Origin: Calothrix sp. FI2-JRJ7
Lineage (GTDB): Bacteria; Cyanobacteriota; Cyanobacteriia; Cyanobacteriales; Nostocaceae
Assembly (NCBI GenBank): GCA_019359675.1
Contig: JAHHGX010000081.1
Span: 62,001 to 126,000 of the forward strand
DNA length: 64,000 nucleotides
Direction of reading: 5' to 3'
Position numbers and translations under genes: made by a program
Notes under the pieces: generated by a model
What the model was told of the DNA's origin: nothing
The model's database searches: none
What the model saw: only the letters and a program-made list of their open reading frames with translations
Shown: piece by piece, positions 1 to 64,000 of the stretch
How positions within the stretch are numbered: the first letter of the stretch is position 1
Layout: every line of letters starts with the position of its first letter

Positions 1-221
1 TTAAATACATACTCAGCGCGTGCAGGTGCAGGAACTAGGCGCCAGTTCTTGTAAGCATTGCGTGCTGCCATTACCGCTTCGTTGACATCTTCGTTTGTAG
101 AACGGGGAAAAGTAGCGACAATTTCATTTTTAGACGCTGGGTTAATACTTTGCAGCCTATTGTCAGTGCAATCTAACCATTTACCGTTGATGAAATTACG
201 ACAAGTGAAGGTAGCAGCCAT
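1..221 (-). CDS. aldehyde dehydrogenase family protein, N-terminal part (runs off the window)
   Basis: The minus strand reads from an ATG at 221 into a protein starting MAATFTCRNFINGKW, followed by an INPAS segment and a stretch of the form EAVMAARNAYKNW. This is the classic N-terminus of NAD(P)-dependent aldehyde dehydrogenases (FING.W, NPA, A..AF..W). A GGAG ribosome-binding site lies about ten bases upstream. Only about 73 residues are visible, so the catalytic Cys and Glu, the cofactor loop and the substrate cannot be judged. It probably oxidises an aldehyde to the acid in the cytosol. The family call is firm; the subfamily is not assignable. Confidence 0.82.
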   Translation of the reverse strand, partial: MAATFTCRNFINGKWLDCTDNRLQSINPASKNEIVATFPRSTNEDVNEAVMAARNAYKNWRLVPAPARAEYVF

Positions 222-341
222 AATTTATAACTCCAAATCGGTAGTACACTGATACAGTTGCATTTAGTTTCGCTCGAATTTTATAAATCGTCAATATATT
301 TTTCCATATGCTTCCGGTACGTGACACCAGAGAATACGTAG

Positions 342-401
342 GGTGCGTGACAGCCTGAAAAATTCAGCAAATAAACGAAAAATAAGCTGCTGTCACGCAC
401 C
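342..401. repeat. 60-bp palindromic element, GGTGCGTGAC family, copy 1
   Basis: Perfect 13-base inverted arms GGTGCGTGACAGC (342-354) and GCTGTCACGCACC (389-401) flank an AT-rich centre. Elements with the same arm core and almost the same length occur at 3125-3183 and 17552-17610, and a larger relative at 42097-42229. It lies downstream of the small secreted-protein gene and could fold as a hairpin in its transcript. Confidence 0.75.
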
Positions 402-478
402 AGTACTAATGAATGCCAGTAATTAGGATTTGGTGCTGAAAAATTATGAGGTAGCAATTTCTGTTCAGCAACGGAATC

Positions 479-784
479 TTAGTCTCGGCAACGTTGCTTG
501 CCACCGTGTTCTCCGCTAATGTTTTTACATCCCAACTTGCTTAAATAAGCGTGGCAAGATCCTGCACCTTTACCGCTTCCTAATTCTTCACCGTTTGCTC
601 CTTTGCCATAACACTTAACTGTACCTGCTGTTGGATTGGCGCTTGTACTTACTCGTGAACTGGCAGTATGTGCCGATTGATTGGTCTGCGCTAGCAATAA
701 GGAAGGAAATGCTACTACAGAAGCAAAAACTGATGCTGCTATCAAGGTGCTAAAAGAGGTAAACTTTAATGTCCGTAATTTCAT
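479..784 (-). CDS. small secreted cysteine-containing protein, function unknown
   Basis: Predicted 101-residue protein. The N-terminus is a clear signal peptide: basic MKLRTLK, then a hydrophobic core rich in Ala, Val and Ser, ending in LLLAQ. The mature part is polar, with a Ser/Thr-rich linker and a C-terminal half holding four cysteines in the contexts CYGKG, SCHAY, GCKN and RCRD, which could form two disulfides. I prefer the ATG at 784 because an AGGA motif sits nine bases upstream; an in-frame TTG three codons earlier has no room for it. I recognise no family. Probably periplasmic or secreted. Confidence 0.65.
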   Translation of the reverse strand: MKLRTLKFTSFSTLIAASVFASVVAFPSLLLAQTNQSAHTASSRVSTSANPTAGTVKCYGKGANGEELGSGKGAGSCHAYLSKLGCKNISGEHGGKQRCRD

Positions 785-890
785 TGTTTTCAATCCTGGT
801 TAAAATTAGTTATTCGTTTGAGGTTTTGAATCTCTCACTTTTACATATGTCAATCCAGGAATATTTATGCAAGTTCGCAGCTACCTTTAC

Positions 891-2696: not shown

Positions 2697-3124
2697 AACT
2701 ACAAGGCGCCGTATTTTGGGGAAAACAAAAATATAAAACAAACCCTTGCGTTTTTGCCTCTTCCCCAAAAAATAATCCCCAGCACACCCCCGTAAATACC
2801 GGGAGCGCACAGGGGTTCAAATGTTGCAGCAAAAAGTGAATTAGTAATAAGTTAACAGGTTTTAATTTAAAATCTAAGTAAATTTAGATTAAGATTTGGT
2901 AAAACAGGCTAAGTAGGGATACACAGTTACTGACCAGAACTGAGTAATGTATCCATAAAGCTACTGACTTAGGTTGATTTTGCGCTTCTACCCAGAAAAT
3001 TAATTGCTGTAGACGTAAGCTTTTCAGTATTAATTTTTTTATCTAGATTGAAAATATTACGTTTTAAACGAAGAGTATGGGGAGAGGGTACACACCCCCC
3101 ATTTCTAGAGCGCGTCGTAAGTAA

Positions 3125-3183
3125 GGTGCGTGACGCTACTAGTTCATTTGTTTTAGTTTGCGATTGTTATGGCGTCACGCACC
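3125..3183. repeat. 59-bp palindromic element, GGTGCGTGAC family, copy 2
   Basis: Arms GGTGCGTGACGC (3125-3136) and GCGTCACGCACC (3172-3183) are perfect inverted repeats. It ends eight bases from the stop codon of the gene at 3191-3802, so it may act as that gene's 3' hairpin. The rest of the 2697-3190 stretch is AT-rich with no gene seen. Confidence 0.78.
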
Positions 3184-3190
3184 CTACATT

Positions 3191-3802
3191 TTACGGTTCA
3201 AAGCGACATCGTAGAGAGTCAAAGACTTTTTCGATTTTTGGAAGCGCGTTTTCGCCGTTAGTAATGATACTGACGTTTCTTTCTATGCCGTTTTCAGTGA
3301 TTTTGACTAGATAGCGAATTGCGGGGACGGGTGTAGCTTGTTCGTCAAATATTTGTTTCCCGTTTTGAACTGAGACAGGAATGGTTTTACCACATAGCTC
3401 TTTGTTCTCGGTTTTTGAGTCAGTCGGAATAAAGTCACCCTGAAAAATTTCTTGGAGTGTATCGTCTAAATTAACTGTGTCGTCCTCTGGTGTTTGTTCT
3501 ATTGGTACTTTGCTAACAAAGAGTGTCACATCTGGTGGACTTGTTTTACTTGTGATGATAGCAATATTTTTGGCGCCGAAGTTTAAACCAGCGACTCCTT
3601 TGGCGCCACCAGGTATCTGATAATCGAATAAACTCTGAGCAATTGCTTCTGCTCGTGCTGGAGTTAGTACATTAGTTAGCGTTTTTGTTGCAACTCCAAC
3701 CAAAGCAGTACCAACCAACCCAAATGCTCCCAGCAGAATTAAAAGTAATTCCCATACTCGTACTGGATAATCAGGTGTGACATTTGTTGATTCTTCTTTC
3801 AT
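3191..3802 (-). CDS. membrane-anchored protein of unknown function
   Basis: 203 residues: a short cytoplasmic N-terminus, one hydrophobic segment at about residues 17-40 (VWELLLILLGAFGLVGTALV), then a soluble domain of about 160 residues presumably outside the membrane. Two cysteines (ELCGK and LRCRF) could pair. I recognise no catalytic motif. It starts 17 bases after the P-type ATPase stop codon on the same strand, so the two are probably co-transcribed and it may be an accessory or unrelated passenger. The 3' end abuts a palindromic repeat. Confidence 0.6.
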   Translation of the reverse strand: MKEESTNVTPDYPVRVWELLLILLGAFGLVGTALVGVATKTLTNVLTPARAEAIAQSLFDYQIPGGAKGVAGLNFGAKNIAIITSKTSPPDVTLFVSKVPIEQTPEDDTVNLDDTLQEIFQGDFIPTDSKTENKELCGKTIPVSVQNGKQIFDEQATPVPAIRYLVKITENGIERNVSIITNGENALPKIEKVFDSLRCRFEP

Positions 3803-3819
3803 ATATAACCCTGCAACAC

Positions 3820-6270
3820 CTAACTTAAATCGACTCCTAAAAAACGGTTAAAGAATTTAGAACGCCATACTGCTCTTAGTATAAAACACCACTCAAATGC
3901 TACTAAGACCAAAAATAGACAATCTTGCCAGCTTAATACTGCTAGTTCAAAAAAGCGCCGTAATGGTGGCAGCGTTAGAACTACCATATATACTACAAAT
4001 AATATTGATGCAGCAATAGTGTAACGCCAGTCATTACTCAAAGGTTCTGCGGCAACCCAAACTCTCGTTGGAGGTTTGAGGAAGGGAAGTAAAAATAAAT
4101 GGCACAAAACGAGAATACTTACCAAAGCTGTACGGGGAAGTGTGTAGTCAACGTCGTTAATGTTTTGACCCGGTGGTAAATCTAAAACGGCTCTAACAAG
4201 ATAGAGTAAGAAAACCAACAGTGCAACTAATGTCATCGTCAATGTGGCAGGAATTGTAAAATGCATCAACGAGCGAACCATACTGCTATGCTTTGTTGTT
4301 TCTCCTGGTTTTGCCCAAATTGGAAATACTGCTGTTGGTAATCCAACTCCAAACATTGCTAACAGTGCGCTATGTTTGTTTACTAGTGGGAAGCTATTGG
4401 CTACCATACCTGTTGACAAAATTAGCAGTGCGACACAAAATACCCTAACTATAAATAGTGCTAGTGAGTCACGAATACCGTTACGAATTCTTTGACCTTC
4501 TAAAAAGGCAAATGGTAATGCTGCAAAAGAGTCTTTAAGTAAAATAATATCGGCAACGCTGCGAGTTGCTTTAGAACCACTCTCCATTGATATAGCTAAA
4601 GATGCTTGTTTGAGAGATAAAACGTCATTAACTCCGTCACCAATCATTGCCACATAATTACCTTGTAAACGCAGTGTTTGTACAAGTTTGGCTTTTTGTT
4701 CGGGGGTAATACGACCAAAAACAGTAGAAGTTTTTGCTGCTGCTGCAAATTGAGAGTCATCCATTATTGCTAACTCTAAACCTGATACGACGCTAATATC
4801 GTCACGTAACCCTGCTTGTTTAACGAGTGCTGCTACTGTGTCTGGGTTGTCTCCCGAAATAATTTTGAGGTCAATACCTGCTTTGTTGAATGAATGTAGT
4901 GTCTCACTTGCTTGCGGACGGAGTTTATCGCTAAAGACGATAACACCTAGAGGTGTGAGTGTACTTGGCAAAGCTATTTTTTCTGGTTCAGAGCTAATTA
5001 CATCCAAATTTTCTGTATAAGCGAACAAAAGTACTCGCAAACCTCGTTCAAAGTTTTCTTGGATGTAATTATTTATTGATTCGGGTAATGATATTGATGG
5101 AGCTAATATTTCCGGCGCCCCTAAAATAAAAGTACCATGTGGTTCATCATCGAAAGCGATTGCACTCCACTTACGCGCGCTAGAAAAAGGTATTTCTGAT
5201 AAAGTAGAACGTTGTTTACCGCTACAAGATGACTCAATTGCCTCACTAGTACGATTAGGCGCCGTTGTATTAGTTACATAGTCTCCTAACCTTTGTCGCA
5301 GTTCGGTTTCACTAATACCAATCGCCATAAGATGCTGTAGCTCTATTTGATTGCTTGTTAATGTTCCTGTTTTATCTAAACAAAGTATATTTACGTGGCT
5401 AAGTGATTCTACGGCATTAGCTTGTTGAATTAATACATCTTGACCCAACATTCTGACGGCTGCTGCACCATAAGCTAAAGTAATCGCGATTAGTAGTCCA
5501 CTTGGAACCAAGCCAGCAACAACAGCAGCATGTTGAACAATATCAGCTAAAGAATAAGAGCGACTGGTAAAGCTAATGCCAACTAAAATCCATAAATAGC
5601 AAGCAAGTAATAATAATATGCGAATAATTAAATTAATTTCTTGCTGTAGCGGTGTATTAACGTGACGAAATGCGCGCGCTCCCGTCATTAGTTTATATGC
5701 TACCGTTTCGGCGCCAACTTTTACAGCTTCAAAACAAGCAGCGCCGTTCACACAAAAAGTACCAGAGTAAACACTATCTTGGGCGACTTTGGATATTAAA
5801 TCAGATTCACCCGTTAATAAAGACTCATCAACATCAATGCGACCATCACCAACAACAACCCCATCAACTAAAATTTGGTCGCCAGCAGCAAGGACTATAA
5901 TATCACCCTGAACAATTTGTGTAGGGTCAATGTCACGTTTATTACCTTCTCGAATTACAGTAGTGTGAGGACGGTTAAGCAAAGCGATTTCGTCAAGCTT
6001 GCGCTTCGCCCATATTTCTTGGCAAACAGCGATAATAACACCGCTAGAGATAATAACTACAACCAGAAAAGCATCGCTATAACGGCGTAGTAGAATCATT
6101 ACAGCGCTAATCGCAAAGAAAACGATATTAATAAAATTGAATATATTCTCGTTTATAATTTGGCGGTACGAACGGCTCGTTTGCAGAAACACATTGTTGC
6201 CAAGACCTTCTGCACGCCGCTTTATCGCTTCTTCCTCCGTTAGACCTTGCGGTTGTAAGTAGTTATCCAT
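3820..6270 (-). CDS. cation-transporting P-type ATPase (HAD-IC)
   Basis: 816 residues with the full P-type ATPase layout: membrane helices near 40-60 and 66-85, actuator domain with TGES at 153-156, helices near 215-265, phosphorylation motif DKTGTLT at 299-305, a nucleotide-binding domain, GDGVND near residue 527, then six C-terminal helices. It pumps a cation across the plasma membrane using ATP. The helix before the DKTGT loop carries VPSGLL (255-260) rather than the PEGL of typical Ca/Na/K pumps, and there is no CPC heavy-metal motif, so it is not a copper or zinc pump. It may belong with the CtpE-like group; the ion is not assignable. The start ATG (MDNYLQPQGLTEEEA) fits the family. Confidence 0.85.
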   Translation of the reverse strand: MDNYLQPQGLTEEEAIKRRAEGLGNNVFLQTSRSYRQIINENIFNFINIVFFAISAVMILLRRYSDAFLVVVIISSGVIIAVCQEIWAKRKLDEIALLNRPHTTVIREGNKRDIDPTQIVQGDIIVLAAGDQILVDGVVVGDGRIDVDESLLTGESDLISKVAQDSVYSGTFCVNGAACFEAVKVGAETVAYKLMTGARAFRHVNTPLQQEINLIIRILLLLACYLWILVGISFTSRSYSLADIVQHAAVVAGLVPSGLLIAITLAYGAAAVRMLGQDVLIQQANAVESLSHVNILCLDKTGTLTSNQIELQHLMAIGISETELRQRLGDYVTNTTAPNRTSEAIESSCSGKQRSTLSEIPFSSARKWSAIAFDDEPHGTFILGAPEILAPSISLPESINNYIQENFERGLRVLLFAYTENLDVISSEPEKIALPSTLTPLGVIVFSDKLRPQASETLHSFNKAGIDLKIISGDNPDTVAALVKQAGLRDDISVVSGLELAIMDDSQFAAAAKTSTVFGRITPEQKAKLVQTLRLQGNYVAMIGDGVNDVLSLKQASLAISMESGSKATRSVADIILLKDSFAALPFAFLEGQRIRNGIRDSLALFIVRVFCVALLILSTGMVANSFPLVNKHSALLAMFGVGLPTAVFPIWAKPGETTKHSSMVRSLMHFTIPATLTMTLVALLVFLLYLVRAVLDLPPGQNINDVDYTLPRTALVSILVLCHLFLLPFLKPPTRVWVAAEPLSNDWRYTIAASILFVVYMVVLTLPPLRRFFELAVLSWQDCLFLVLVAFEWCFILRAVWRSKFFNRFLGVDLS

Positions 6271-6370
6271 TAAATAAGGCAGTGGTTAATCAAAGTGCTA
6301 GCTGTTCTAATATAAACACTACAACAGCACATAAGTTAACACGATTTTTATTCCACCTGCCATAACATCC

Positions 6371-6404
6371 CCCTCTTGTAGCACAGGCATACGAACTGTG
6401 CAGT
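6371..6404. repeat. degenerate REP-like element (CTTGTAGCACAGGCA family)
   Basis: The flanks CTTGTAGCACAGGCAT and CTGTGCAGTCAC match the element at 63032-63065, but the second hairpin arm is damaged (ACGAACTGTGC instead of CCTGCCTGTGC). It sits between the ATPase gene and the truncated MFS gene. Confidence 0.6.
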
Positions 6405-6430
6405 CACATAGTTAGAAAAAACACACACAA

Positions 6431-6814
6431 CTAATTAGCTTCGGAAAGACTTACAAAGGCGCCCGAAGCTGGATAAAATAGTACAAATGCTGCTAGTAAT
6501 AGTGGAAAGTTCTGGCTAAAGGAAACCAGCAGCAAAGAAATACCAAAAGCTACACCTCCACCCAAGATAAGCTGGCGCCTAAAACCAATATCCCCCAGTA
6601 TTCCCAGAATTGGTTCTATCAAGCTACTGATAGTATTCGGTATTGTAAGTAACATTCCAACTTGTAGATAAGAAAGATGCAAGTCATTACGAATTAACGG
6701 CCACGCGGCGCCACGTACTCCATCAACAAGTTCATCTAATAATTCAATAACTAGGAAGATGAAGGTTAATAAAATTACATTCCTAGTAGTTTTGTTTTTA
6801 CCATTAAGTGGCAT
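6431..6814 (-). pseudogene. truncated MFS transporter (N-terminal third only)
   Basis: The reading frame gives 127 residues: a basic N-terminus and about four hydrophobic helices, with the MFS loop 2-3 signature in the form LGDIGFRR. It ends abruptly at SLSEAN followed by TAG. MFS permeases normally have about 400 residues and 12 helices, and no continuation of the frame was found downstream. The start ATG and helix pattern are intact, so this is a 3'-truncated remnant, not a frameshift. It cannot transport as it stands. It lies at the edge of a stretch rich in remnants. Confidence 0.7.
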
Positions 6815-7197
6815 GAAAGTATTCTCCCGTCCTCAAAATTTGATACCAACGCAAAATCGTGACAACGTTGGAGAGGAGGGGGAATCCACGAGCAAAATTT
6901 TCGCCCTAAAAGTAAGACGAATCGTTTGCTGAATAATTTTCTAGCAGCTTACCAGGGTGGAAACATCATATAGGGCTAGTAATCTTGTGTGTTAATACTG
7001 TAGCATAGTTAACTACAAAATTTTATTTCTCTAAAAGTAATCCAAGATTTTTATCAATTACACGAAAAATCAGTTTTTTTAGCCTGCTCCCGGCAGGCTT
7101 TGTTCGTATAGTCTCACGCTTCGAGGGTGTAAATGAGTGTAAAATCACACGTATTATAATTAAAATTTGGTACGCCAAAGCTCATGATTTTGATTAA
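6815..7197. other. gene-free stretch
   Basis: No coding sequence supported. A GC-rich hairpin AGCCTGC-TCCCG-GCAGGCT (about 7081-7099) lies downstream of the 172-residue gene, but on that gene's strand it is followed by A residues, so it is a poor intrinsic terminator for it. Confidence 0.4.
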
Positions 7198-36757: not shown

Positions 36758-36794
36758 TTGATTATTAATATTGGTTGATTTGATAAAAAAGGCT

Positions 36795-38186: not shown

Positions 38187-38188
38187 AC

Positions 38189-40357: not shown

Positions 40358-40427
40358 AACTTTTATCTCAATAAATGCAGAATTCGTCTATCACATAACC
40401 GTACAAACACTAGTTTTAGTAACAAAA

Positions 40428-41585: not shown

Positions 41586-41897
41586 ATCTATAATAATACA
41601 AATAGTTAAATAACAAATGTTTTATTCATAAAACGGTAAATAATTTTTGACATTCCCCAAGCAGTAATATCACCTGCGTAAAAACCGCGTGTTGTACCAA
41701 TATAATTTCATTCCGGAAAATTTACTAGCTTTCATAAATTCTTCATAAAATCTTTACAGATTACTGTAACGTAGCGTATTGCATTGTTGATCAAAATCAT
41801 GGTCATACAGTTTTTTACCACAGAGACACAGAGTACACGGAGAGAGGAGAGTAAATTGACCTTTACTACACATCTGGGACTTTGTGCCACAACCTCT

Positions 41898-41942
41898 CAA
41901 ATTTTATGAGACAGACCATTAGGGTCTGTCTCATAAAATTTG
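41898..41942. repeat. perfect 20-bp inverted repeat with 5-base loop
   Basis: The left arm CAAATTTTATGAGACAGACC (41898-41917), loop ATTAG and right arm (41923-41942) are exactly complementary. It may be a minimal insertion-sequence derivative or a strong transcription barrier. Confidence 0.85.
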
Positions 41943-42096
41943 GGGAATAAAGTTTTGGTGTGTCCTTTATTCCTAATTCTTTCTTAGCGTCCTTTGCGTG
42001 CTTTGCGGTTCGTTTTTTTAACCCACTAAAATTAATGACATGAACTAGTGGTTCGTGTCATTTAATTTGGGGCGTTGGCGCCTGCCGTTACGGTAT

Positions 42097-42229
42097 GGTA
42101 GGGTGTGTGACACCACGGGAAAATTCCACTCAAGATGAAAAGACTTGTAGCACCAGATTCTCGGTGGTGCGTCAAAGCCCATAATTTTTCATTTGATTGA
42201 AGATTGTAATAGCTTTGACGCACCCTACC
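42097..42229. repeat. 133-bp palindromic element with GGTAGGGTGYGT ends
   Basis: The ends GGTAGGGTGTGT (42097) and its complement ACGCACCCTACC (42218-42229) are inverted. The interior repeats GTGCGTCAAAGC (about 42168-42179), which also pairs with the right end. It resembles the 59-60-bp GGTGCGTGAC elements and may be a longer member. Confidence 0.6.
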
Positions 42230-42237
42230 TATTCAAT

Positions 42238-42711
42238 TTAATAATTATTCTTATTATTACAACGAACTTTCTCGAAATACTGTTGATGTTCGTCTGATGC
42301 TAACCAGTATGTTGAAGCGGGTTTGATATCTGTTACAATAGCTTTTTCAAATTTTCCAGAAGATTGTAAACTCTGTTTAGAATTTCTGGCGATAGTTTCT
42401 TGCTGACTTGTGTGGTAAAAAATTACACTACGATACTGTTCACCTCGGTCGGCGCCTTGTCGATTTAAACTTGTAGGGTCATGAATGTCCCAAAATATGT
42501 TTAGTAGCTCTTCATAACTTACAATTGCAGGGTCATACTCAATCTGCGCTACTTCTGCGTGTCCAGTAATTCGCGACACCACATCAAGATGACACGGGTT
42601 TTCAAAATGTCCTCCCATGTACCCAACAGAAGTTGATAGTACTCCCTTCACTTTACGATATGCTGCCTCTACACCCCAGAAACAGCCAGCCCCAAATGTT
42701 GCTTTTTCCAT
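42238..42711 (-). CDS. msrA: peptide-methionine (S)-S-oxide reductase MsrA
   Basis: 157 residues with the catalytic motif GAGCFWG (Cys10), GYMGG, HAEVAQIEYDP, FWDIHDPTSLNRQGADRGEQYRS-type sequence and a C-terminal half ending in YFEKVRCNNKNN, where Cys can serve as resolving residue. It reduces methionine-S-sulfoxide in proteins, with thioredoxin as donor, in the cytosol. It follows the peroxiredoxin gene (51 bases) on the same strand, a sensible oxidative-stress pair and possibly under the same PerR-type control. Confidence 0.93.
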   Translation of the reverse strand: MEKATFGAGCFWGVEAAYRKVKGVLSTSVGYMGGHFENPCHLDVVSRITGHAEVAQIEYDPAIVSYEELLNIFWDIHDPTSLNRQGADRGEQYRSVIFYHTSQQETIARNSKQSLQSSGKFEKAIVTDIKPASTYWLASDEHQQYFEKVRCNNKNNY

Positions 42712-42761
42712 ATATATAATAATACAGGGTAAAGGTTTTTCCCTTTACCCTTTACCTCAGT

Positions 42762-43310
42762 TTATACTGCGGCGCCTACACGAGCGCTCTTAAGATAAGC
42801 AAGCATCGTGTCAGCATCAGAAACTTCAAACGGGTCAGTAGTACAATTATCTTCGTGACCTTCTTCTATAAATATTTTTTCGATTTTGCAATCATTAACC
42901 ACCATTGCATAACGCCAAGACCTCATTCCAAAACCCAAGTTGGACTTATCCACCAGCATTCCCATTTTACGGGTAAACTCACCATTGCCATCAGGCAAGA
43001 TAAACATTCTTTTGATACCTAAATTTTTAGCCCACTGGAACATCACAAACGCATCGTTCACAGACAAGCAAATAACCTCGTCAACTCCCTGCGCTTTAAT
43101 TTCATCGTAAAGTTCTTCATAACGTGGTAAGTGCGTCGAAGAACAGGTAGGAGTAAACGCTCCAGGCAATGCAAGCAGTACAATTCGTTTTCCACCAAAA
43201 ATTTCTTGTGTCGTCAGGTCTTGCCAACGAAAAGGGTTAGATCCACCAATTGACTCATCGCGTACACGGGTTTTGAAAACTACGTTTGGTACTTTTGTTA
43301 CCGCTACCAT
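42762..43310 (-). CDS. type II peroxiredoxin (redoxin family)
   Basis: 182 residues. The peroxidatic site [12 protein letters not shown] (Cys56) is intact, preceded by IVLLALPG and followed by [15 protein letters not shown] and [15 protein letters not shown]. This is the PrxII/PRX5 type that reduces peroxides with thioredoxin or glutaredoxin. In Synechocystis the peroxiredoxin gene sll1621 is divergent from the PerR-type regulator slr1738 and controlled by it; the same arrangement is seen here with 287 bases between. The extra cysteine VVNDCKIE may be resolving or structural. Confidence 0.9.
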
Positions 43311-43355
43311 CTCATCTACTCCTAATATATGTATGTTTGTTGCTGGACTACGCTC

Positions 43356-43436
43356 AGAAACCCGGTTTCTTCATTCAAATCTTTTATAAAAATGACGATT
43401 TGTCTGCGACAATGAATGCGTAGAAACCGGGTTTCT
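43356..43436. repeat. 81-bp element with AGAAACC..GGTTTCT palindromic ends
   Basis: The ends are AGAAACCCGGTTTCT (43356-43370) and AGAAACCGGGTTTCT (43422-43436). The interior is shared, inverted, with the MITE-like element at 26381-26428. It sits inside the peroxiredoxin-PerR intergenic region, moving the operator away from the peroxiredoxin start. Confidence 0.75.
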
Positions 43437-43464
43437 AGGATTTGGTTTGTCTTTTTACTCCAAC

Positions 43465-43479
43465 TCAGAATAATTCTGA
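43465..43479. promoter_or_regulatory. candidate PerR/Fur-type operator (7-1-7 palindrome)
   Basis: TCAGAATAATTCTGA has perfect seven-base arms around one A, the architecture of Fur-family boxes, and shares the AATnATT core of PerR boxes. It lies 118 bases before the regulator start and about 155 bases before the peroxiredoxin start. Confidence 0.6.
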
Positions 43480-43597
43480 TTTAAGAATTAGTCAATAGTA
43501 ATAAATACTCATATTCAGTAATGCTTCTGATTGTAGTATGATTTCAAGACGCGAACCATTACAATATAGAGACACCATTAAGTGGCAGCAATAAGCA

Positions 43598-44020
43598 ATG
43601 AAAGAATTAGTCGATGATATAGTTAAGACCTTAAGAGGGAAAGGTCTAAAAGTGACACCTCAGCGGTTTGCCGTTTACGCGAACTTACTATCACGTCAAG
43701 ACCATCCAACAGCAGAGCAGATACTTCTTGACTTGAATAAGCAGGCGCCAATATCATCGCAAGCAACGGTATACAGTGCGCTTCAAGCTTTACGCGATGT
43801 TGGTTTAGTGCGTGAAGTGCTTTTAGAAGCGGGTGTATCACGCTACGACGCGAATGTAGAAAAGCACCATCACTTTTATTGTCGTGGGTGCAAAACAATA
43901 GAAGATATTCCTTGGGAGGCTTTTCCCAATGTTAGTTTAGATAAATTACGTCCAGGGTTAAAAGCGCAAACTTACGAAGTTACTGTATATGGAACCTGCA
44001 ACTGTAATATCGAACACTGA
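43598..44020 (+). CDS. perR: PerR-type Fur family transcriptional repressor
   Basis: 140 residues with the Fur winged helix (LKVTPQRFAVYANLL, SSQATVYSALQALRDVGLV) and metal ligands VEKHHHFYCRGC (His90-92, Cys95, Cys98) plus a tail CNC (Cys134, Cys136). The tail is C-x-C, not the usual CxxC. Peroxide-sensing PerR proteins derepress peroxiredoxin genes when bound iron oxidises a His. The divergent peroxiredoxin and the 7-1-7 palindrome support PerR over Fur or Zur. The 3' end overlaps the next gene by 32 bases. Confidence 0.85.
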   Translation: MKELVDDIVKTLRGKGLKVTPQRFAVYANLLSRQDHPTAEQILLDLNKQAPISSQATVYSALQALRDVGLVREVLLEAGVSRYDANVEKHHHFYCRGCKTIEDIPWEAFPNVSLDKLRPGLKAQTYEVTVYGTCNCNIEH

Positions 44021-44600
44021 TTTTATTACCGACTTAGCCCAAGCAGCAGATGCATTTCGAGATAGCAGTAAAACTCGTCCCAAACCTGATGTAGTTGTGA
44101 ATGCACTACTACAAGCAGAGAAAACAGCAAAGCAACAAAAATTAACATACCCGTTTACCTCATTATCAGGGAACTGGCGCCTATGTTTTGCCACCGGAAC
44201 ACGTAAAGTCAGAAAACGTTCCGGCATAATTTTAGGTAAAGGTTTTTACATGCCTAAATTTTCTCCTGCTTATATAGGTTTTGATACATTAGATACATCT
44301 ATAAACAGAGGTAGAATAAGTAATAAAATTCAGTTTGGCGGATTTGCGCTAGAATTATCAGGCTTAACTCAATATATCGATAAAAAAAATCTACTAGCTT
44401 TTGACTTCCATACTTATGAAATAAATTTATTTAATCACAAACTATATAGTGGTAATGTCCCTGGTAGTCAAACAAATATAAGTAATTTTTATGACCAAAA
44501 AATAGCCAAACTAGCGTTTTTTGCATTCTTTTTAGTAACTGAAAACTTCATTGCAGCGCGTGGTCGCGGTGGTGGTTTAGCATTATGGATAAAACAATAA
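43989..44600 (+). CDS. protein of unknown function, PAP/fibrillin-like
   Basis: 203 residues, no signal peptide or membrane segment. The centre LSGNWRLCFATGTRKVRKRSG resembles the LxGxWxLxY start of plastid-lipid-associated (fibrillin) domains, followed by beta-rich segments and a C-terminal hydrophobic helix and ARGRGGGLALW. It overlaps perR by 32 bases in another frame, so it is probably translated from the same transcript. The match to fibrillins is weak; unknown function is the safe label. Confidence 0.6.
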   Translation: MEPATVISNTDFITDLAQAADAFRDSSKTRPKPDVVVNALLQAEKTAKQQKLTYPFTSLSGNWRLCFATGTRKVRKRSGIILGKGFYMPKFSPAYIGFDTLDTSINRGRISNKIQFGGFALELSGLTQYIDKKNLLAFDFHTYEINLFNHKLYSGNVPGSQTNISNFYDQKIAKLAFFAFFLVTENFIAARGRGGGLALWIKQ

Positions 44601-44616
44601 TTGAGGTAATCTGACT

Positions 44617-44718
44617 ATGAAAAGAATAGCTGGCTTAATATTTTTTATTGTGATTGTGGTAGCGGCTGTCACTCTTGGATTAAACTGGATGCGGCGCCAA
44701 AAAACAACGAGAAGATAA
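44617..44718 (+). CDS. 33-residue single-span membrane protein
   Basis: ATG at 44617 with GAGGT upstream. The sequence starts MKRIAGLIFFIVIVVAAVTL, continues GLNWMRR and ends KTTRR: a hydrophobic helix between basic ends. Its TAA overlaps the ATG of the glycosyltransferase by one base (TAATG), the arrangement of translationally coupled genes. Too short for family assignment, but the ribosome-binding site, the composition and the coupling all argue it is real. Confidence 0.6.
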   Translation: MKRIAGLIFFIVIVVAAVTLGLNWMRRQKTTRR

Positions 44719-45473
44719 TGTCGAGTGTATCGATTATCATACCCACTCTTAATGAAGCAAGCAGTTTAGAGCAAACACTGCGTCAGCTAACTGTTCTTAA
44801 CCCAAAAGCAAAAGAAATTCTGATAGTTGATGGAGGAAGTTCAGATAATACAATCGAATTAGCTAAACACTGCTTGCATTTTTTCCCTCTTAATGTAGAT
44901 GTAGAAATTATTAAATGTGATGTTAAAGGACGTGCGGTTCAAATGAACTTTGGCGCCTTGTATGCGAGTGGTGATATTTTATGCTTTCTCCATGCTGATA
45001 CTCAGGTATCCCATGATATAGTCACAGTGATTGAACAAACTCTGACAAACTCAAAAATTTCCTGTGGTGGGTTTATTTCTTTAATGACAGGTACTCAAAC
45101 AACACGCTGGGGTATATCGCTGCACAATTACCTCAAAACTTACTATGCACCCTTAATATTTCGTCCCTACTCATTTTTTAAAGGTTTGCGATTATTATTT
45201 GGCGACCAAGTAATGTTTTGTAGACGCCAGGATTTTTTAAAATGTGGTGGATTTAATGAAGCATTACCAATTATGGAAGATGGTGATTTGTGTTTAAAAT
45301 TATCCAAATTAGGACAAATTCGCTTAGTTAACCGCGTTGTTACAAGTTCTGACCGTCGCGTTGCACGTTGGGGTGCAATTAAAGCAACAGCTATTTATTT
45401 ATATGTGGGAATTTTGTGGGGTGTTGGTGTTGATGCTAATTATTTAAAAAAGTTTTATGAGGATATTCGCTAG
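44718..45473 (+). CDS. family 2 glycosyltransferase, TIGR04283-like
   Basis: 251 residues starting VSIIIPTLNEASSLEQTL, with the donor site LIVDGGSSDNT, FLHADTQ (DxD-type motif) and a C-terminal GFNEALPIMEDGDLCLKL. The VKGRAVQMNFGA and FGDQVMFCRRQDFLKCGGF blocks are characteristic of the TIGR04283 group, named for a suggested role in arsenosugar biosynthesis. It is translationally coupled to the tiny membrane protein before it. Acceptor unknown. A REP-like hairpin follows its stop codon directly. Confidence 0.85.
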   Translation: MSSVSIIIPTLNEASSLEQTLRQLTVLNPKAKEILIVDGGSSDNTIELAKHCLHFFPLNVDVEIIKCDVKGRAVQMNFGALYASGDILCFLHADTQVSHDIVTVIEQTLTNSKISCGGFISLMTGTQTTRWGISLHNYLKTYYAPLIFRPYSFFKGLRLLFGDQVMFCRRQDFLKCGGFNEALPIMEDGDLCLKLSKLGQIRLVNRVVTSSDRRVARWGAIKATAIYLYVGILWGVGVDANYLKKFYEDIR

Positions 45474-57722: not shown

Positions 57723-58913
57723 CTAACGTAATGAAATAAACTGGGGACGAGTTTCTAATTGCGATAGAAAATCTATAACTTGTTGTCTTGCCCATTTATC
57801 GGCGCCTATAATATCTTCCAAAGAAGGATTTTGTGCATTATTATGACGCGCACACGTCATTTCAATACAACGTGGGATATCTAAAAACTTAATTTTCTCA
57901 TCTAAAAACAGAGCTACTGCCTGTTCATTAGCTGCGTTTAATACTGCTGGCATCGAACCACCTGCCCGACCTGCTGCGTATGCTAAATTCATACATGGGT
58001 ATTTTTGATGGTCAGGTTCACGGAAAGTCAAATTTCCAGCTTTGACTAAATCGAGACGTTCCCAGTCTGTAAAAATTCTTTCGGGATATGACATTGCATA
58101 CAGCAATGGTAAACGCATATCAGCCCAACCAAGTTGAGCTAGTACTGAGGTATCTTGAAGTTCAATTAGTGAGTGAATAATACTTTGCGGATGAATTACA
58201 ATTTCGATGTTATCGTAGTCCATCCCAAACAAAAAGTGTGCTTCAATTACTTCTAAGCCTTTATTCATCAGGGTTGCAGAATCAACGGTAATTTTGCGTC
58301 CCATTGACCAGTTTGGATGCTTTAAAGCATCGGCAACTGTAACTGAAGCTAAATCGGATACTGCCCAGTCACGGAAGGCGCCTCCTGAAGCTGTCAGAAT
58401 AATCTTACGTAATCCGTGAGTTGGTACACCTTGTAAACATTGAAATATTGCAGAATGTTCTGAGTCAGCAGGTAGTAATTTAACACCATACTCTTCAATT
58501 AAAGGTAGAACAACTGGGGCGCCTGCAATTAAAGTTTCTTTGTTAGCAAGAGCAATATTTTTACCTGCTTTAATTGCTGCGATAGTTGGAAGTAAACCAG
58601 CACAACCAACTATACCTGTAACAACGCTTTGGGAATCACCATAAGCAGCTACCTCAATAATTCCAGCTTCACCTGCAAGCAAAATTGGTTTGTAATCAAG
58701 GTCTTTAATGCCATCTTGAAGTATCGGCAATTTTTCAGGAGCGCAAATTGCTGCTATACTCGGTCGAAACTGCCGAATCTGTTTGATTAGCATTTCAACA
58801 TTATTACCAGCCGCTAACCCTACAACCCTGAATTGGTCAGGATATTGTGCCACAATATCTAAAGTTTGGGTTCCAATTGAACCTGTGGAACCAAGAAGAG
58901 TTATTGCTTTCAC
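57723..58913 (-). CDS. dxr: 1-deoxy-D-xylulose 5-phosphate reductoisomerase
   Basis: 396 residues, the usual length. NADPH-binding start [32 protein letters not shown], the substrate/metal region [15 protein letters not shown] with the catalytic Asp and Glu, [34 protein letters not shown] and [10 protein letters not shown] are all intact. It converts DXP to 2-C-methyl-D-erythritol 4-phosphate in the MEP pathway, feeding carotenoids, phytol and quinones. Cytosolic homodimer. Single gene; 53 bases separate it from the pentapeptide-repeat gene upstream on the same strand. Confidence 0.96.
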
Positions 58914-58966
58914 AATTTTTTAATTATTAAAGAATAACTCTAATATAAAATGCTTTGGCATTTACA

Positions 58967-59464
58967 TTATGGGCACATTAGTGTTTCGCGAGTGTCGCGT
59001 CCGGTTTTGGAATTTGTACCTTTGGCGACTTTACATAATTTCTCTTGCTCGTCGTCGCGTAATAATACGTCGGTAAAGTCTGCTCCATCGATTACGGCGC
59101 CATCAAATTTTGCACTAGCAGCAAAAGCTCCTTCTAATACTGCGTTGGTTAAGTTCGCTTTAACTAAGCGTGCGGAGTCTAAGGTAGCGTTTGTTAAATC
59201 AGCACCTGTAAAATCTACTGACTCAAGGTTTGAAGCAAAGAAACTTACACCGCGCAAATTAGAGTTAGTAAAGTTGCTTTGCTTTAAGTTGGCTTTGGTA
59301 AAGCTAGAGTCGCTCAAGTCACGTCCTGAAAAATCAGCGTCAATCAAAATCTCTTTGTTATAGTCGAGTGCAAAACTCGCAGGCGCCAGCCCGAAGTTGA
59401 AAGTTAAGCAAATTATTCCGTAAAAGAATAAACTAAGTATATACGTCCAAATACGTTTAGTCAT
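58967..59464 (-). CDS. exported pentapeptide-repeat protein (thylakoid lumen type)
   Basis: 165 residues with a signal peptide (ILSLFFYGIICLTFNFGLAPASFA) and a run of A(D/N)Lxx pentapeptides (ADFSGRDLSDSSFTKANLKQ and on to FDGAVIDGADFTDVLLR), forming a right-handed quadrilateral beta-helix. It ends with a short Cys-containing tail (EKLCKVAKGTNSKTGRDTRE), with the second Cys at the end (LMCP). This layout matches lumenal pentapeptide proteins of cyanobacteria and plastids (TL15/TL17 type). Its start is 26 bases from the divergent YraN gene, so their promoters must overlap. Confidence 0.85.
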   Translation of the reverse strand: MTKRIWTYILSLFFYGIICLTFNFGLAPASFALDYNKEILIDADFSGRDLSDSSFTKANLKQSNFTNSNLRGVSFFASNLESVDFTGADLTNATLDSARLVKANLTNAVLEGAFAASAKFDGAVIDGADFTDVLLRDDEQEKLCKVAKGTNSKTGRDTRETLMCP

Positions 59465-59490
59465 ATAGTTTTGAAGTAGTATTTACATCT

Positions 59491-59934
59491 ATGGCTCCTT
59501 CTAATCATTATCTCGACATCGGTACATTAGGTGAAGACTTTGTAGCCGAGTGGTTAGCTGAAAATGGCTCAAAAATTCTACACCGTAGATGGAAGAGTGG
59601 TCGTAGAGGAGAAATTGATATTATTGCGCTCGTTGAAGCAAAAGAAAAAATAAATATTACTACTCAAGATTTAACACTAGCGTTTGTTGAAGTGAAAACG
59701 CGCAGCGCACGAAACTGGGACTCTGGAGGAAGATATGCCGTAGAGTCACGTAAACAAACTAAATTAAGGATAGCAGCACAAATGTTTCTGGCAGAACACC
59801 CAGATAAAGAAAACTATACGTGTCGCTTTGATGTTGCTATCGTCTGTTGTAAGCCAAAACCTAAAAGCCAACATGCAGAAAATTTAGAGTATTATTTAAC
59901 CCTACAAGAATATATTACAGGTGCTTTTGATTGA
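59491..59934 (+). CDS. YraN family (UPF0102) nuclease-like protein
   Basis: 147 residues, GTLGEDFVAEWLAENG at the start, then RRGEIDII (Glu41, Asp43) and LAFVEVKTR (Glu67, Lys69): the intact PD-(D/E)xK core of the YraN/UPF0102 family, related to Holliday junction resolvases. Biological role uncertain; found throughout bacteria. It has a cyanobacterial-type insertion between the two motifs (EAKEKINITTQDLT). Divergent from the pentapeptide-repeat gene. Confidence 0.88.
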   Translation: MAPSNHYLDIGTLGEDFVAEWLAENGSKILHRRWKSGRRGEIDIIALVEAKEKINITTQDLTLAFVEVKTRSARNWDSGGRYAVESRKQTKLRIAAQMFLAEHPDKENYTCRFDVAIVCCKPKPKSQHAENLEYYLTLQEYITGAFD

Positions 59935-60013
59935 GATGCCGATAACTGGTAGGGTCAAGTCCTAACTACCAGTCACCGTACAATTATTCAATTATTTTCT
60001 CAAACTTAACTTT

Positions 60014-60403
60014 TTAAGCGAGTGTTTCTGGGCAATAACCCAAACCTCGCACAAACTGTTGACGGAACGCTTCAATTTCTTCTCTTTCAGGATTTCCATG
60101 TGAGACTATCGCGACTTGATAGCGACGCATTACATCAACAGGATACTGTCCAGCTTCTAGACTCCACAGTGCCATTTGTACCCGCATTGGTGGTTCGTAA
60201 GCAATTCCTAACTCGTTTAAGAACGCGCGAAAATCACCATCTATGTCCGATGATACTTGACCTGTAAGTTTAACTCGTACCACCCAGCCATCAATTTGAT
60301 GAATCACAGTTACGAAAGAAACAGGCAACTGTGGTCGGGAGTGTAAAAATTGAATTACTCTTAAGGTTAGACTGGCATTTGCCAGGTAATACAAATGTTC
60401 CAT
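60014..60403 (-). CDS. conserved protein of unknown function
   Basis: 129 residues from the ATG at 60403 (MEHLYYLANASLTLRVIQFL); a TTG at 60427 would add eight. An alpha/beta protein with VSFVTVIHQIDGWVVRVKL and a conserved-looking ending (RRYQVAIVSHGNPEREEIEA, FVRGLGYCPETLA). No signal peptide, membrane segment or recognised catalytic motif. I believe it recurs in other cyanobacteria but cannot name it. Convergent with the YraN gene, 79 bases away. Confidence 0.6.
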   Translation of the reverse strand: MEHLYYLANASLTLRVIQFLHSRPQLPVSFVTVIHQIDGWVVRVKLTGQVSSDIDGDFRAFLNELGIAYEPPMRVQMALWSLEAGQYPVDVMRRYQVAIVSHGNPEREEIEAFRQQFVRGLGYCPETLA

Positions 60404-60491
60404 TTCGCTGCTTGGGATGAAAGCCAATCCTACATATCTATTATTGGAACAATAACCCCATCATCCGGTAGGGTAAAAGCCCCCGTTTTTT

Positions 60492-60511
60492 ATTGGGTAG
60501 GTTTACCCAAT
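60492..60511 (+). terminator. hairpin with T-rich tail, no obvious upstream gene
   Basis: ATTGGGTA (60492-60499), loop GGTT, TACCCAAT (60504-60511), then TTTTATATTTT. The nearest upstream gene on this strand ends at 59934 with an oppositely directed gene in between. It may mark an unannotated transcript or an early stop in the queA leader. Confidence 0.4.
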
Positions 60512-60643
60512 TTTTATATTTTCGTTTACGTGTCACCTAATAGTACTCATCATAAACTCAAAAGATAAGATTGACCCCTAATCGCGTAAAGTTCATTTAT
60601 AAAGAAAAGCTAAAATTACTTTATATCCATTATCAGAATCTAG

Positions 60644-61783
60644 ATGCAGCAGGACTTAGAGCAACTCAATTTCAATCCCACCTCCACAGACGGAGAGAAA
60701 TATTGTGATTTAGACCGTTCGACAGCTGGTTACGACTACGATTTACCCGAACAATTGATAGCTCAAAATCCAGCAGTTCCCCGTGACAGTTCAAAATTGC
60801 TAGTAGTAAATTCGACTAGTAAAACTAATACTAGTTCCCTTTTACACCATATATTCCGTGATTTACCGGATATTTTACAACCTGGTGATTTATTGATAAT
60901 GAACGACACCAAGGTTTTGAGTGCGCGTTTACACGGTCGTAAATCTACTGGCGCCAAGTTGGAAGTTTTACTCTTAGAAGAGCGTGAACAAAATTGTTGG
61001 TTGGCATTGGTAAAACCAGGAAAGCGATTTAAGATTGGTTCACAGATATTTTTTGAGGCGCCTCCTTATGATGGCACACTAGCAGCGACAGTAATAGACT
61101 CAGATAAAGCAACAGGTGGACGGGTATTAAAATTTCATGTGCCAAATGGAAAATCTTTGGTGCAATTATTAGATACATTCGGCGAAGTACCATTACCTCC
61201 GTACATAACACAAAGCCAAGCATCCGACGAGCAGTATCAAACCGTATATGCTAATACGCCAGGTGCAGTAGCGGCGCCAACAGCAGGGCTACATTTTACA
61301 CCTGAACTACTTGACACATTAGAGAAAAAAGGCATAAACCACGCGTTTATAACTCTACATGTGGGTGTAGGAACGTTTCGTCCCGTCGAAGTTGAAGATG
61401 TAACTACACACACAATGCACTCCGAATGGATAGAAGTGCCATCTACGACAGTCGAGCAAATCAAAGCAACGCAACACAAAGGTGGAAGAATTATAGCAGT
61501 AGGAACAACCGTTGTTAGAGCATTAGAAGGCGCCGCAGCAGAAACCGGGGAAATAACAGAATTTTGCGGCAAGACAAATTTATTTATCTACCCTGGTTTT
61601 CAATGGCGAGTCATTGAGGGGTTAATAACCAACTTCCACTTACCTCGCTCCAGTTTACTAATGCTAGTCAGCGCACTTATCGGTCGAGAAAACTTACTCA
61701 ATATATACAAAGAAGCAATAAACGAGAATTACCGCTTCTACTCATTTGGTGACGCAATGCTAATTCTCCCTGAAAAAACATAA
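60644..61783 (+). CDS. queA: S-adenosylmethionine:tRNA ribosyltransferase-isomerase
   Basis: 379 residues. After a polar N-terminal extension of about 26 residues, the QueA core begins YDYDLPEQLIAQNPAVPRDS. DLLIMNDTKVLSARLHGRK, PLPPYI, NTPGAVAAPTAGLHFTPELL, THTMHSEWIEV, VRALEGAA and TNFHLPRSSLLMLVSALIG are all intact. It transfers the ribosyl part of SAM to preQ1 in tRNA wobble position 34 to make epoxyqueuosine. No preQ1 riboswitch was seen upstream. Family length is about 345, so the extension is the only oddity; a later start is possible. Confidence 0.94.
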   Translation: MQQDLEQLNFNPTSTDGEKYCDLDRSTAGYDYDLPEQLIAQNPAVPRDSSKLLVVNSTSKTNTSSLLHHIFRDLPDILQPGDLLIMNDTKVLSARLHGRKSTGAKLEVLLLEEREQNCWLALVKPGKRFKIGSQIFFEAPPYDGTLAATVIDSDKATGGRVLKFHVPNGKSLVQLLDTFGEVPLPPYITQSQASDEQYQTVYANTPGAVAAPTAGLHFTPELLDTLEKKGINHAFITLHVGVGTFRPVEVEDVTTHTMHSEWIEVPSTTVEQIKATQHKGGRIIAVGTTVVRALEGAAAETGEITEFCGKTNLFIYPGFQWRVIEGLITNFHLPRSSLLMLVSALIGRENLLNIYKEAINENYRFYSFGDAMLILPEKT

Positions 61784-63026: not shown

Positions 63027-63037
63027 TACCTCTTGTA

Positions 63038-63058: not shown

Positions 63059-63157
63059 AGTCACGTCACTTTCTTTACCACAGAGACCACGAGAGTTCAC
63101 AGAGGAAGAGAGTAAGAAAATTAACCGCAAAAGGCGCAAAGGTCGCAAAGAAAAACA

Positions 63158-63739
63158 TCAGTGAGAGAGCAAATAACCTAAAGCACGACGAACATATAAT
63201 TGCCACGATTCTGTAGTAGGTGGAAAAATTAACCCATAAAGCATAATGCCGCTCATCATGTCAAACACAATACCTGGCTCTAAATTTACAGAAACTTCTT
63301 TTCTCGCTTTTGCCCTTTCTATAACTACAGCAAAAGCATCTCGTCGAGGTTGTAAATACTTTTCCCAATAAATACGCGCGAACTGAGAATTACTCGATGC
63401 ACTACTAATTATCATCGCTACAGTCTTTCTTCCTAGAGGAGTAAAAGTTATTTGCGCGGCGCCTTCAATTAATGCATCAATGTCACTCCATATACTTCCT
63501 GTGTCAGGGATTTCCACATCTTGCCTAACACTCTCAATCGCATCAGCTACTAATTCTTCTTTAGATGTGTAGCGTCGATAAATAGTCGTCTTACCCACAC
63601 CCGCGCGCGCGGCAATTCCATCAATACTCATAGCATCAAACCCTACTTCAGCAAGAAGTTCTAGGGTTGCTTGCAGCATTGCTTGATGAGATTGGAGACT
63701 CCTGGGTCTTCCTGGCGATTTTTTGCTGTTACTACTCAT
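63158..63739 (-). CDS. TetR/AcrR family transcriptional regulator
   Basis: 193 residues. N-terminal TetR DNA-binding domain: GRPRSLQSHQAMLQATLELL, GFDAMSIDGIAARAGVGKTT, IYRRYTSKEELVADAI (helix-turn-helix about residues 30-52). The C-terminal ligand domain (FTPLGRKTVAMIISSAS, YLQPRRDAFAVVIERAKA) resembles the TetR_C_16 group. It likely represses itself and the divergent gene at 63787; a perfect palindrome lies between them. Ligand unknown. Confidence 0.88.
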   Translation of the reverse strand: MSSNSKKSPGRPRSLQSHQAMLQATLELLAEVGFDAMSIDGIAARAGVGKTTIYRRYTSKEELVADAIESVRQDVEIPDTGSIWSDIDALIEGAAQITFTPLGRKTVAMIISSASSNSQFARIYWEKYLQPRRDAFAVVIERAKARKEVSVNLEPGIVFDMMSGIMLYGLIFPPTTESWQLYVRRALGYLLSH

Positions 63740-63755
63740 ATATGTTATTATATTT

Positions 63756-63770
63756 ACGATACAGTATCGT
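63756..63770. promoter_or_regulatory. candidate TetR operator
   Basis: ACGATACAGTATCGT, perfect seven-base arms around one A, in the 47-base gap between the TetR gene and the divergent gene. Position and symmetry fit autoregulation. Confidence 0.65.
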
Positions 63771-63786
63771 ATTTAAAAAGTGAAAT

Positions 63787-64000
63787 ATGAATCCGCGTCC
63801 TAGCTACATGAATAAAAATAGCACTTTGACGCTGACCGAAGGGTTAGAGGAATATTATGCATTAAATCCTAACGTCACAGACCCTAGAAAACTTCCTCCA
63901 GATTTTGCCAAAATTCTTTTAGCGCATGATGTGTCCCACGTCATCTACGGTTGCGATACTGGGATGTACGATGAACTCAAAATTTTGCCCCTAACTTGGT
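63787..64000 (+). CDS. divergent partner of the TetR gene, N-terminal part (runs off the window)
   Basis: From the ATG at 63787 the visible 71 residues start MNPRPSYMNKNSTLTLTEGL and include DPRKLPPDFAKILLAHDVSH and VIYGCDTGMYDELKILPLTW. The LLAHDVSHVIYG stretch has a faint likeness to the HDxxH metal site of Coq4-type proteins, which is only a guess. Probably the gene controlled by the TetR regulator. Confidence 0.6.
   Translation, partial: MNPRPSYMNKNSTLTLTEGLEEYYALNPNVTDPRKLPPDFAKILLAHDVSHVIYGCDTGMYDELKILPLTW

What the first reader, a model, noticed from the sequence alone, without database searches (positions are those of the whole stretch)
1..64000. GGCGCC acts as a highly iterated palindrome in place of HIP1
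Counting by eye I find about 100 copies of GGCGCC, spread evenly and mostly inside genes on both strands. An AT-rich sequence of roughly 38 percent GC would give about three. I did not see a single GCGATCGC, the HIP1 octamer that is abundant in many cyanobacteria. This looks like a lineage-specific substitute for HIP1, perhaps tied to a methyltransferase or to chromosome organisation. I cannot check whether it has been described.
Basis: partly seen in the sequence, partly recalled or inferred. Interest (0 to 1): 0.75.

Follow-up and report, generated by a model that had tools for sequence, protein, structure and literature searches.

The report
GGCGCC replaces HIP1 across genus
The genome around this window, and every held genome of its cyanobacterial genus, is peppered with GGCGCC in place of the usual HIP1 sequence, an already reported kind of replacement that proves to be genus-wide and is now being lost faster than it is renewed.

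Summary
In detail: 113 GGCGCC in the window (3.3 expected from composition), no HIP1, 14,889 copies in the genome against 8 of the reversed control. Codon usage does not explain it (589 in genes against 50 after synonymous shuffling). The kind is known: Elhai (2015) reported GGCGCC as an alternate HIP in Calothrix PCC 7103, here a congener.

New here: all 7 held genomes of the genus carry it (1.15-1.72 per kb); none of 138 other sampled family genomes exceeds about 0.11 per kb. All 7 have little HIP1, lack a C5 methyltransferase found in 131 of those 138, and share an orthologous C5 methyltransferase whose relatives elsewhere go with scarcity of GACGTC and GGCGCC.

In aligned congeners, third codon positions inside the motif change less than in the same codons outside (36 of 912 against 340 of 2,925; a stricter count is weaker, 31 of 583 against 115 of 1,405). 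Yet losses outnumber gains 43:3 (nine control words 112:107), mostly C-to-T at the inner C. Crowded sites are lost more often than isolated ones.

Most likely: a methylation-linked site system whose density matters, fixed once in the genus ancestor, held more weakly than HIP1, now in net decline. Methylation itself is not shown.

The parts
1..64000 (.). 113 copies of the palindrome GGCGCC (the alternate HIP). First bases: 38, 946, 1749, 2176, 2466, 2705, 3572, 3602, 5114, 5258, 5710, 6458, 6574, 6707, 7827, 9247, 10224, 11157, 12261, 12846, 13325, 13404, 13521, 14199, 14411, 14772, 14834, 15041, 15822, 16160, 16455, 16792, 17292, 17335, 17639, 17885, 18022, 19228, 19871, 19977, 20462, 20912, 21400, 21750, 22820, 22885, 23428, 24501, 24951, 25345, 27435, 27593, 28164, 28691, 29560, 30192, 30565, 31532, 32399, 32783, 32828, 33431, 34762, 35129, 35466, 35860, 36356, 37181, 37782, 38179, 38632, 39062, 40268, 42077, 42451, 42771, 43744, 44176, 44693, 44952, 45612, 46313, 46532, 47506, 48248, 48968, 49153, 49204, 49280, 49694, 49793, 50759, 50819, 51781, 52168, 52760, 53226, 53696, 53876, 54270, 54595, 55980, 57801, 58377, 58518, 59096, 59382, 60950, 61057, 61273, 61529, 61958, 63458
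   Evidence: The methyltransferase genes discussed lie outside the window: P0002 at G000:C79:135478-136434 (-), a second copy at G000:C38:10026-10931 (-), P0001 at G000:C31:280281-281390 (+). No PF00145 match of G000 lies in the window's contig C81.
27300..47200 (+). Stretch used to find the syntenic regions in the genus; the gain/loss tests then used the own genome and five congeners (G127, G138, G115, G030, G101); G076 was left out because only 12 kb aligned
   Evidence: (7 of 7 genomes matched). Sites of the whole window retained, with all-G+C control words in brackets: G127 85 of 93 (132 of 185), G138 67 of 75 (110 of 142), G115 67 of 77 (109 of 163), G030 56 of 65 (71 of 98), G101 59 of 78 (88 of 158)

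Best explanation
GGCGCC is an alternate HIP, probably methylated as GG(m5C)GCC by a C5 methyltransferase (P0002, GRCGYC class). It replaced HIP1 once, in the common ancestor of the genus, with loss of the usual HIP1-linked C5 methyltransferase, and was inherited by all sampled members. Individual sites are held by a force that acts on density over some hundreds of bases, so isolated sites are kept and crowded ones are dispensable. Strand discrimination in mismatch repair is the best-fitting such function. The hold is weaker than on HIP1, and at present sites disappear, mainly by C-to-T at the inner cytosine, faster than new ones arise. Shown: abundance, distribution, presence and absence of the two genes, reduced synonymous change, net loss, more loss where crowded. 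Inferred: methylation, its position, the enzyme's specificity, the order of events, mismatch repair.
For: All 7 genus genomes carry 7,475-20,380 copies, against 0-1,053 in the 138 other sampled family genomes; HIP1 31-163 in the 7. P0002 orthologues of all 7 form one clade (100/99 support). P0002 relatives outside the genus go with scarce GACGTC (31 of 38 with, 34 of 100 without, have 20 copies or fewer) and scarce GGCGCC (26 of 38 against 34 of 100 under 1.5 per Mb). Third-position change, motif against the same codons outside, on two sister pairs: pooled 36 of 912 against 340 of 2,925 (P 1.8e-13); GGC 17/304 against 62/555, GCC 10/304 against 76/672, GCG 9/188 against 125/886, CGC 0/116 against 77/812. 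Losses 43, gains 3; 16 and 2 at two further loci. GC-ending codons outside the motif are not in net loss (gains to losses CGC 58:50, GCC 49:52, GCG 75:81, GGC 68:34). Of the 84 losses in the looser trio count 50 are to GGTGCC/GGCACC. Loss falls from 21 of 116 (neighbour within 100 bp) to 3 of 67 (500 bp or more) while flanks stay nearly level (permutation P 0.0014).
Against: No methylation data and no measured specificity for P0002. P0002 relatives occur in 38 HIP1 genomes without GGCGCC enrichment (some of these matches are fragments), and 7 genomes without P0003 still have 2,878-6,883 HIP1 copies, so neither gene alone explains the switch. Maintenance is weaker under the strictest count, which takes only sites where all other genomes agree: 31 of 583 against 115 of 1,405 (P 0.03), with no reduction at the inner C (GGC 17 of 183 against 24 of 303); in PCC 7103 and in the pair G000/G030 the inner C is not protected either (11 of 77 against 19 of 127; 9 of 89 against 13 of 156). 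The crowding effect is partly generic: control words show a weak trend of the same sign (85 of 941 against 45 of 695), and the excess for GGCGCC over it is about 1.7 standard errors by my arithmetic on those counts. The presence/absence evidence rests on one clade and counts as one event.
Confidence: 0.55

Rival explanations
1. By-product of methyl-directed mismatch repair (Elhai's G-meC ratchet): mutations that create GG(m5C)GCC are preferentially kept, with no selection for a function of the sites; the present sites are its slowly decaying product.
For: The other GRCGYC members are depleted (GACGTC 4 against 62.5, GGCGTC 11 and GACGCC 14 against 40), as the model predicts (PMC4390886 sections 18, 19). 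The model also says that the bias stops once sites are dense, which fits the few gains seen now.
Against: The model expects protection at saturation, not 43 losses to 3 gains. A raised GGTGCC-to-GGCGCC rate that I first saw in the trio count (5 of 34) did not hold: the five come from three places, none of them a clear gain, and the singleton count has none. Two genomes (G127, G076) have a single P0002 copy, so the second copy that the paper calls possibly critical is not needed.
Confidence: 0.23
2. Sites for a sequence-specific DNA-binding protein (chromosome organisation, recombination or repair entry), with methylation incidental.
For: Reduced change at several positions of the motif, strongest at the fifth base (third base of CGC: 0 of 116).
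Against: No candidate protein was looked for beyond methyltransferases and Vsr; spacing is close to random over 400 kb.
Confidence: 0.1
3. DNA-uptake sequence maintained by biased transformation.
For: Short, very frequent, mostly in genes, under-represented at very short spacing.
Against: Uptake should give steady gains; here gains are nearly absent. Not tested directly.
Confidence: 0.04
4. Very-short-patch repair by a Vsr-type endonuclease creates the motif.
For: The commonest exchange is C/T at the inner position.
Against: Vsr (PF03852) found in 0 of 145 family genomes, while the same search rings in 5 of 14 control genomes.
Confidence: 0.02
5. Codon usage or base composition.
For: Gly-Ala (GGC GCC) is the commonest reading frame (275 of 589 in contig C20).
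Against: Synonymous shuffling within genes leaves 50 of 589 and 7 of 99; sites lie in all three frames and non-coding DNA is enriched too.
Confidence: 0.01

Closest known systems
Alternate HIP GGCGCC of Calothrix PCC 7103 and D253 (Elhai 2015, PMC4390886)
   Different: The paper reports it as a sporadic property of single strains and thinks a second methyltransferase copy may have been critical; here it is genus-wide (7 of 7 held), two members have one copy, and site turnover is measured.
HIP1 (GCGATCGC)
   Same: GC-rich palindrome at about one site per kb, linked to methyltransferases.
   Different: Other sequence; HIP1 sites in the comparison genus are lost on 3 of 180 branch-sites against 43 of 448 for GGCGCC, although HIP1 has two more bases that could change.

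Membership tests
HIP (highly iterated palindromes, class proposed by Elhai 2015) | GC-rich palindrome (75% GC or more for those that replace HIP1) | tested here: met
   GGCGCC, 100% GC
HIP (highly iterated palindromes, class proposed by Elhai 2015) | about 1,000-2,000 copies per Mb, far above expectation | tested here: met
   14,889 in 8.66 Mb = 1,719 per Mb; 809 against 25.6 in 464 kb
HIP (highly iterated palindromes, class proposed by Elhai 2015) | seen only where HIP1 is low or nearly absent | tested here: met
   31 HIP1 copies in the genome, 31-163 in the genus
HIP (highly iterated palindromes, class proposed by Elhai 2015) | a methyltransferase able to methylate the sequence | tested here: inconclusive
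   P0002 present in 7 of 7; GRCGYC class inferred from site scarcity elsewhere and from Elhai's assignment of two such enzymes to PCC 7103, where P0002 has two matches; not measured
HIP1 | sequence GCGATCGC over-represented | tested here: not met
   0 in the window, 31 in the genome
HIP1 | very strong site retention between related species (as measured here in genus g4) | tested here: not met
   retained above codon-matched controls but lost at 9.6% per branch-site against 1.7% for HIP1
DNA cytosine-5 methyltransferase (PF00145), for P0002 | family profile over its cut-off | tested here: met
   219 bits, cut-off 22; TIGR00675 168.8 bits, cut-off 100.65
GRCGYC-specific methyltransferase, for P0002 | methylates GRCGYC | not testable with these tools
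   no methylation data, no REBASE

The most novel reading that the evidence does not exclude
A whole genus switched once from HIP1 to a second methyl-marked palindrome, kept it through the divergence of its species, and is now losing it while still protecting isolated copies. This would be a natural experiment showing that what is selected is a mark within some hundreds of bases of every point, whatever its letters.
Probability: 0.32. Interest if true: 0.75.

Novelty: new member of a known kind. Interest (0 to 1): 0.5.

Why it matters
Elhai calls the relation between HIP sequences and their methyltransferases a mystery. A second site system that has persisted across a genus removes one of his arguments for a function peculiar to HIP1 (that alternate HIPs are sporadic and do not persist in clades). 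The gain/loss and distance tests turn 'function or by-product' into something that more genomes can decide. The inner-C substitution hotspot also points to the methylated base, which the repair model needs and which the paper says is known for no enzyme of GRCGYC specificity.

Tried and rejected
Codon usage, composition and low-order Markov explanations: rejected. Vsr-type repair: 0 of 145 genomes. Fully neutral relic: disfavoured, though the strictest count leaves only weak evidence against it. A raised GGTGCC-to-GGCGCC gain rate: seen first, withdrawn after looking at the places. Even spacing as a general property: true of the window only. P0001 (370 aa, in 7 of 7) as the enzyme responsible: set aside, because it is in 104 of 145 family genomes whatever their GGCGCC count. 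A methyltransferase specificity from solved structures or NCBIfam: only general C5 methyltransferase matches. Rfam on the window: no match at gathering scores. The long site-free stretches of contig C20: looked at for ORFs and RNAs only, nothing conclusive. A HIP1 conservation paper that I recall (NAR 2018) is not held and was not read. Of Elhai 2015 I read the abstract, the passages around GGCGCC, sections 12, 13 and 19, and the first parts of sections 14 and 18; no other paper was opened.

Limits of the counts: trio counts can count a change on an inner branch more than once and can take parallel changes for gains; the sister-pair count and the singleton counts avoid most of this. Singleton counts keep only sites where all other genomes agree, which favours slow sites. 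Of the other words run, GCGCGC gave 1 loss and 2 gains, AGCGCT 2 and 1, CGCGCG 9 and 2, and the octamer TGGCGCCA 1 and 3 (flank changes included). Multi-base differences include a few misaligned sites; with one-base losses only the distance effect stays (54 of 572). In the HIP1 codon test 9 of 380 changes were seen, 8 of them in one frame and probably one shared event; the HIP1 trio count had 3 losses and 1 gain. The tables were copied by hand. Only 2 of 6 named P0002 loci were read for neighbours.

Full report
Observation. GGCGCC occurs 113 times in the window where composition predicts 3.3, and HIP1 is absent. In 464 kb of the same genome it occurs 809 times; the next palindromic hexamers well above expectation are CGCGCG and GCGCGC. 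In the whole genome there are 14,889 copies against 8 of the reversed word. Within genes 589 copies (400-kb contig) fall to 50.1 +/- 4.0 after synonymous shuffling, and 99 to 7.3 in the window; non-coding DNA is also rich in it.

Distribution. Among 145 family genomes, drawn evenly from a larger group, the 7 of the window's genus (all that are held) have 7,475-20,380 copies each and the 138 others (55 genera) 0-1,053. HIP1 is the mirror image: 31-163 in the 7, and above 1,000 in 135 of the 138 (up to 8,803; the lowest are G082 with 30, G022 with 535, G083 with 990). Aligned stretches range from about 94% identity with the window's genome down to 77% for G076 against G127, the latter over 12 kb, so the trait has lasted through the divergence of the genus. 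In 388 genomes of the class, among which only the window's own stands for the genus, no other combines more than one copy per kb with more than four times the reversed control; G363, G490 and G376 deserve a look.

What is known. Elhai (2015, PMC4390886) described GGCGCC as an alternate HIP in Calothrix PCC 7103 and in 19 kb of strain D253, found GRCGYC-type but no GGCGCC-specific methyltransferases, and proposed a G-meC-dependent mismatch repair as the cause. He argued that alternate HIPs are sporadic and do not persist in clades. A search for GGCGCC with Calothrix in the open-access library found that paper alone; wider searches listed nothing further on it that I could see from titles and abstracts. 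Subscription papers are not covered.

Methyltransferases. The seven genomes hold 9-17 PF00145 matches each, fragments included. Clustering leaves two kinds present in all seven. P0001 is in 104 of 145 family genomes and so is not special. P0002 is in 45 of 145, including all seven; its seven orthologues are one clade, apart from the extra copies, and G127 and G076 have no extra copy. Its neighbours were read in two genomes: similar genes flank it in both, with no restriction gene evident in NIES-4105, while PCC 7103 has a further methyltransferase and a 435-aa protein one gene away. Outside the genus, genomes with a P0002 relative have fewer GACGTC (median 7 against 83 copies, P 1.5e-7) and fewer GGCGCC (median 0.73 against 4.22 per Mb, P 0.003), as a restriction-linked GRCGYC enzyme would give; 7 of the 38 have more than 20 GACGTC. 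GACGTC is scarce in all seven genus genomes (38-78 copies), and in the window's genome GGCGTC and GACGCC are scarce too, so that only GGCGCC of the four is enriched. P0003, a C5 methyltransferase shared by four HIP1 genomes examined, is in 131 of 145 family genomes and in none of the seven. I take it for the CGATCG enzyme that Elhai found lost in PCC 7103, which is inference. Seven other genomes lack it and keep HIP1.

Turnover. In the syntenic region of six genus genomes, with G101 as outgroup, GGCGCC was lost on 43 of 448 branch-sites and gained 3 times, while nine control words together gave 112 losses and 107 gains. Two further loci gave 16 losses and 2 gains (controls 57 and 41). In a HIP1 genus of similar divergence, HIP1 was lost on 3 of 180 branch-sites and not gained. 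So GGCGCC is in net decline. It does not look like a wholly neutral relic: on two sister pairs, third codon positions inside the motif changed in 36 of 912 cases against 340 of 2,925 for the same codons outside (the looser trio count gave 0.6-6.8% against 15-18%). The contrast shrinks when only sites on which all other genomes agree are counted (31 of 583 against 115 of 1,405, P 0.03) and is absent there for the inner C. The main loss is C-to-T at the inner cytosine (50 of 84 in the trio count; 23 of 43 singletons), as expected if that base is methylated. The third base of CGC in the motif, whose change to T would give GGCGTC, changed in 0 of 116 sister-pair cases.

Crowding. Pooling the three loci (577 branch-sites, 177 sites, 59 losses), loss falls with distance to the nearest other site: 21 of 116 under 100 bp, 15 of 121, 7 of 101, 13 of 172, and 3 of 67 at 500 bp or more, with flank substitution nearly level (0.0162, 0.0171, 0.0152, 0.0131, 0.0143); permutation P 0.0014, bootstrap interval of the distance coefficient -0.79 to -0.12. 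The first locus alone gave P 0.022 and the two others P 0.025. Control words show a weaker trend of the same sign, so I treat this as moderate evidence. It agrees with the shortage of gaps under 60 bp.

Reading. The best account is a methyl-marked site system that took over from HIP1 once in the ancestor of this genus, in which density rather than each site matters, and which is now being lost faster than it is renewed. Elhai's ratchet explains why only GGCGCC among the GRCGYC words is common and why gains may stop at high density, but not the excess of losses. Neither P0002 nor loss of P0003 is sufficient alone. Methylation, specificity and any role in mismatch repair remain to be shown.

Noticed in passing
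464 kb of G000 including the window: Many other palindromes are almost absent: TTCGAA 0 (153 expected), TGCGCA 0 (62.5), CCATGG 0, GCATGC 0, GTCGAC 0, GATC 145 (1,642), GGCC 99 (672), which suggests many past or present restriction systems.
   Followed up: no
464 kb of G000; alignments of the G127 region: CGCGCG (183 against 25.6) and GCGCGC (132 against 25.6) are the next over-represented palindromes; CGCGCG also shows net loss (65 losses, 21 gains in trios; 9 and 2 in singletons), GCGCGC less clearly (31 and 16; 1 and 2).
   Followed up: partly
G363, G490, G376: Possible further GGCGCC-rich cyanobacteria outside the family: 9,489 (control 2,450), 3,074 (165) and 1,169 (25) copies.
   Followed up: no
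G022, G083: Large family genomes with little HIP1 (535 and 990 copies) and few GGCGCC (326 and 3); they may use yet another word.
   Followed up: no
L100:1222-4513: In Calothrix PCC 7103 a 658-aa C5 methyltransferase and a 435-aa protein sit just before the gene (RuBisCO-like by recall, no family search run) next to the P0002 orthologue; NIES-4105 lacks them there. It may be an inserted restriction-modification pair.
   Followed up: no
L126-L145 (contig C20), about 253171-259910 and 341386-347537: Two stretches over 6 kb without any GGCGCC, of lower GC (0.36); the second is mostly one 2,013-aa ORF. They may be recently acquired DNA.
   Followed up: partly
G127/G138 against G115: The inner C of the motif seems protected in G127/G138 (8 of 215 against 49 of 399) but not in PCC 7103 (11 of 77 against 19 of 127); the hold may differ between lineages.
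   Followed up: no
window 27392-45473 and 57723-61783: CHAT/TPR protein, two-partner secretion pair (ShlB/TPS) and polysaccharide synthesis genes; a DXP reductoisomerase at 57723-58913 and a queuosine synthesis protein at 60644-61783.
   Followed up: no
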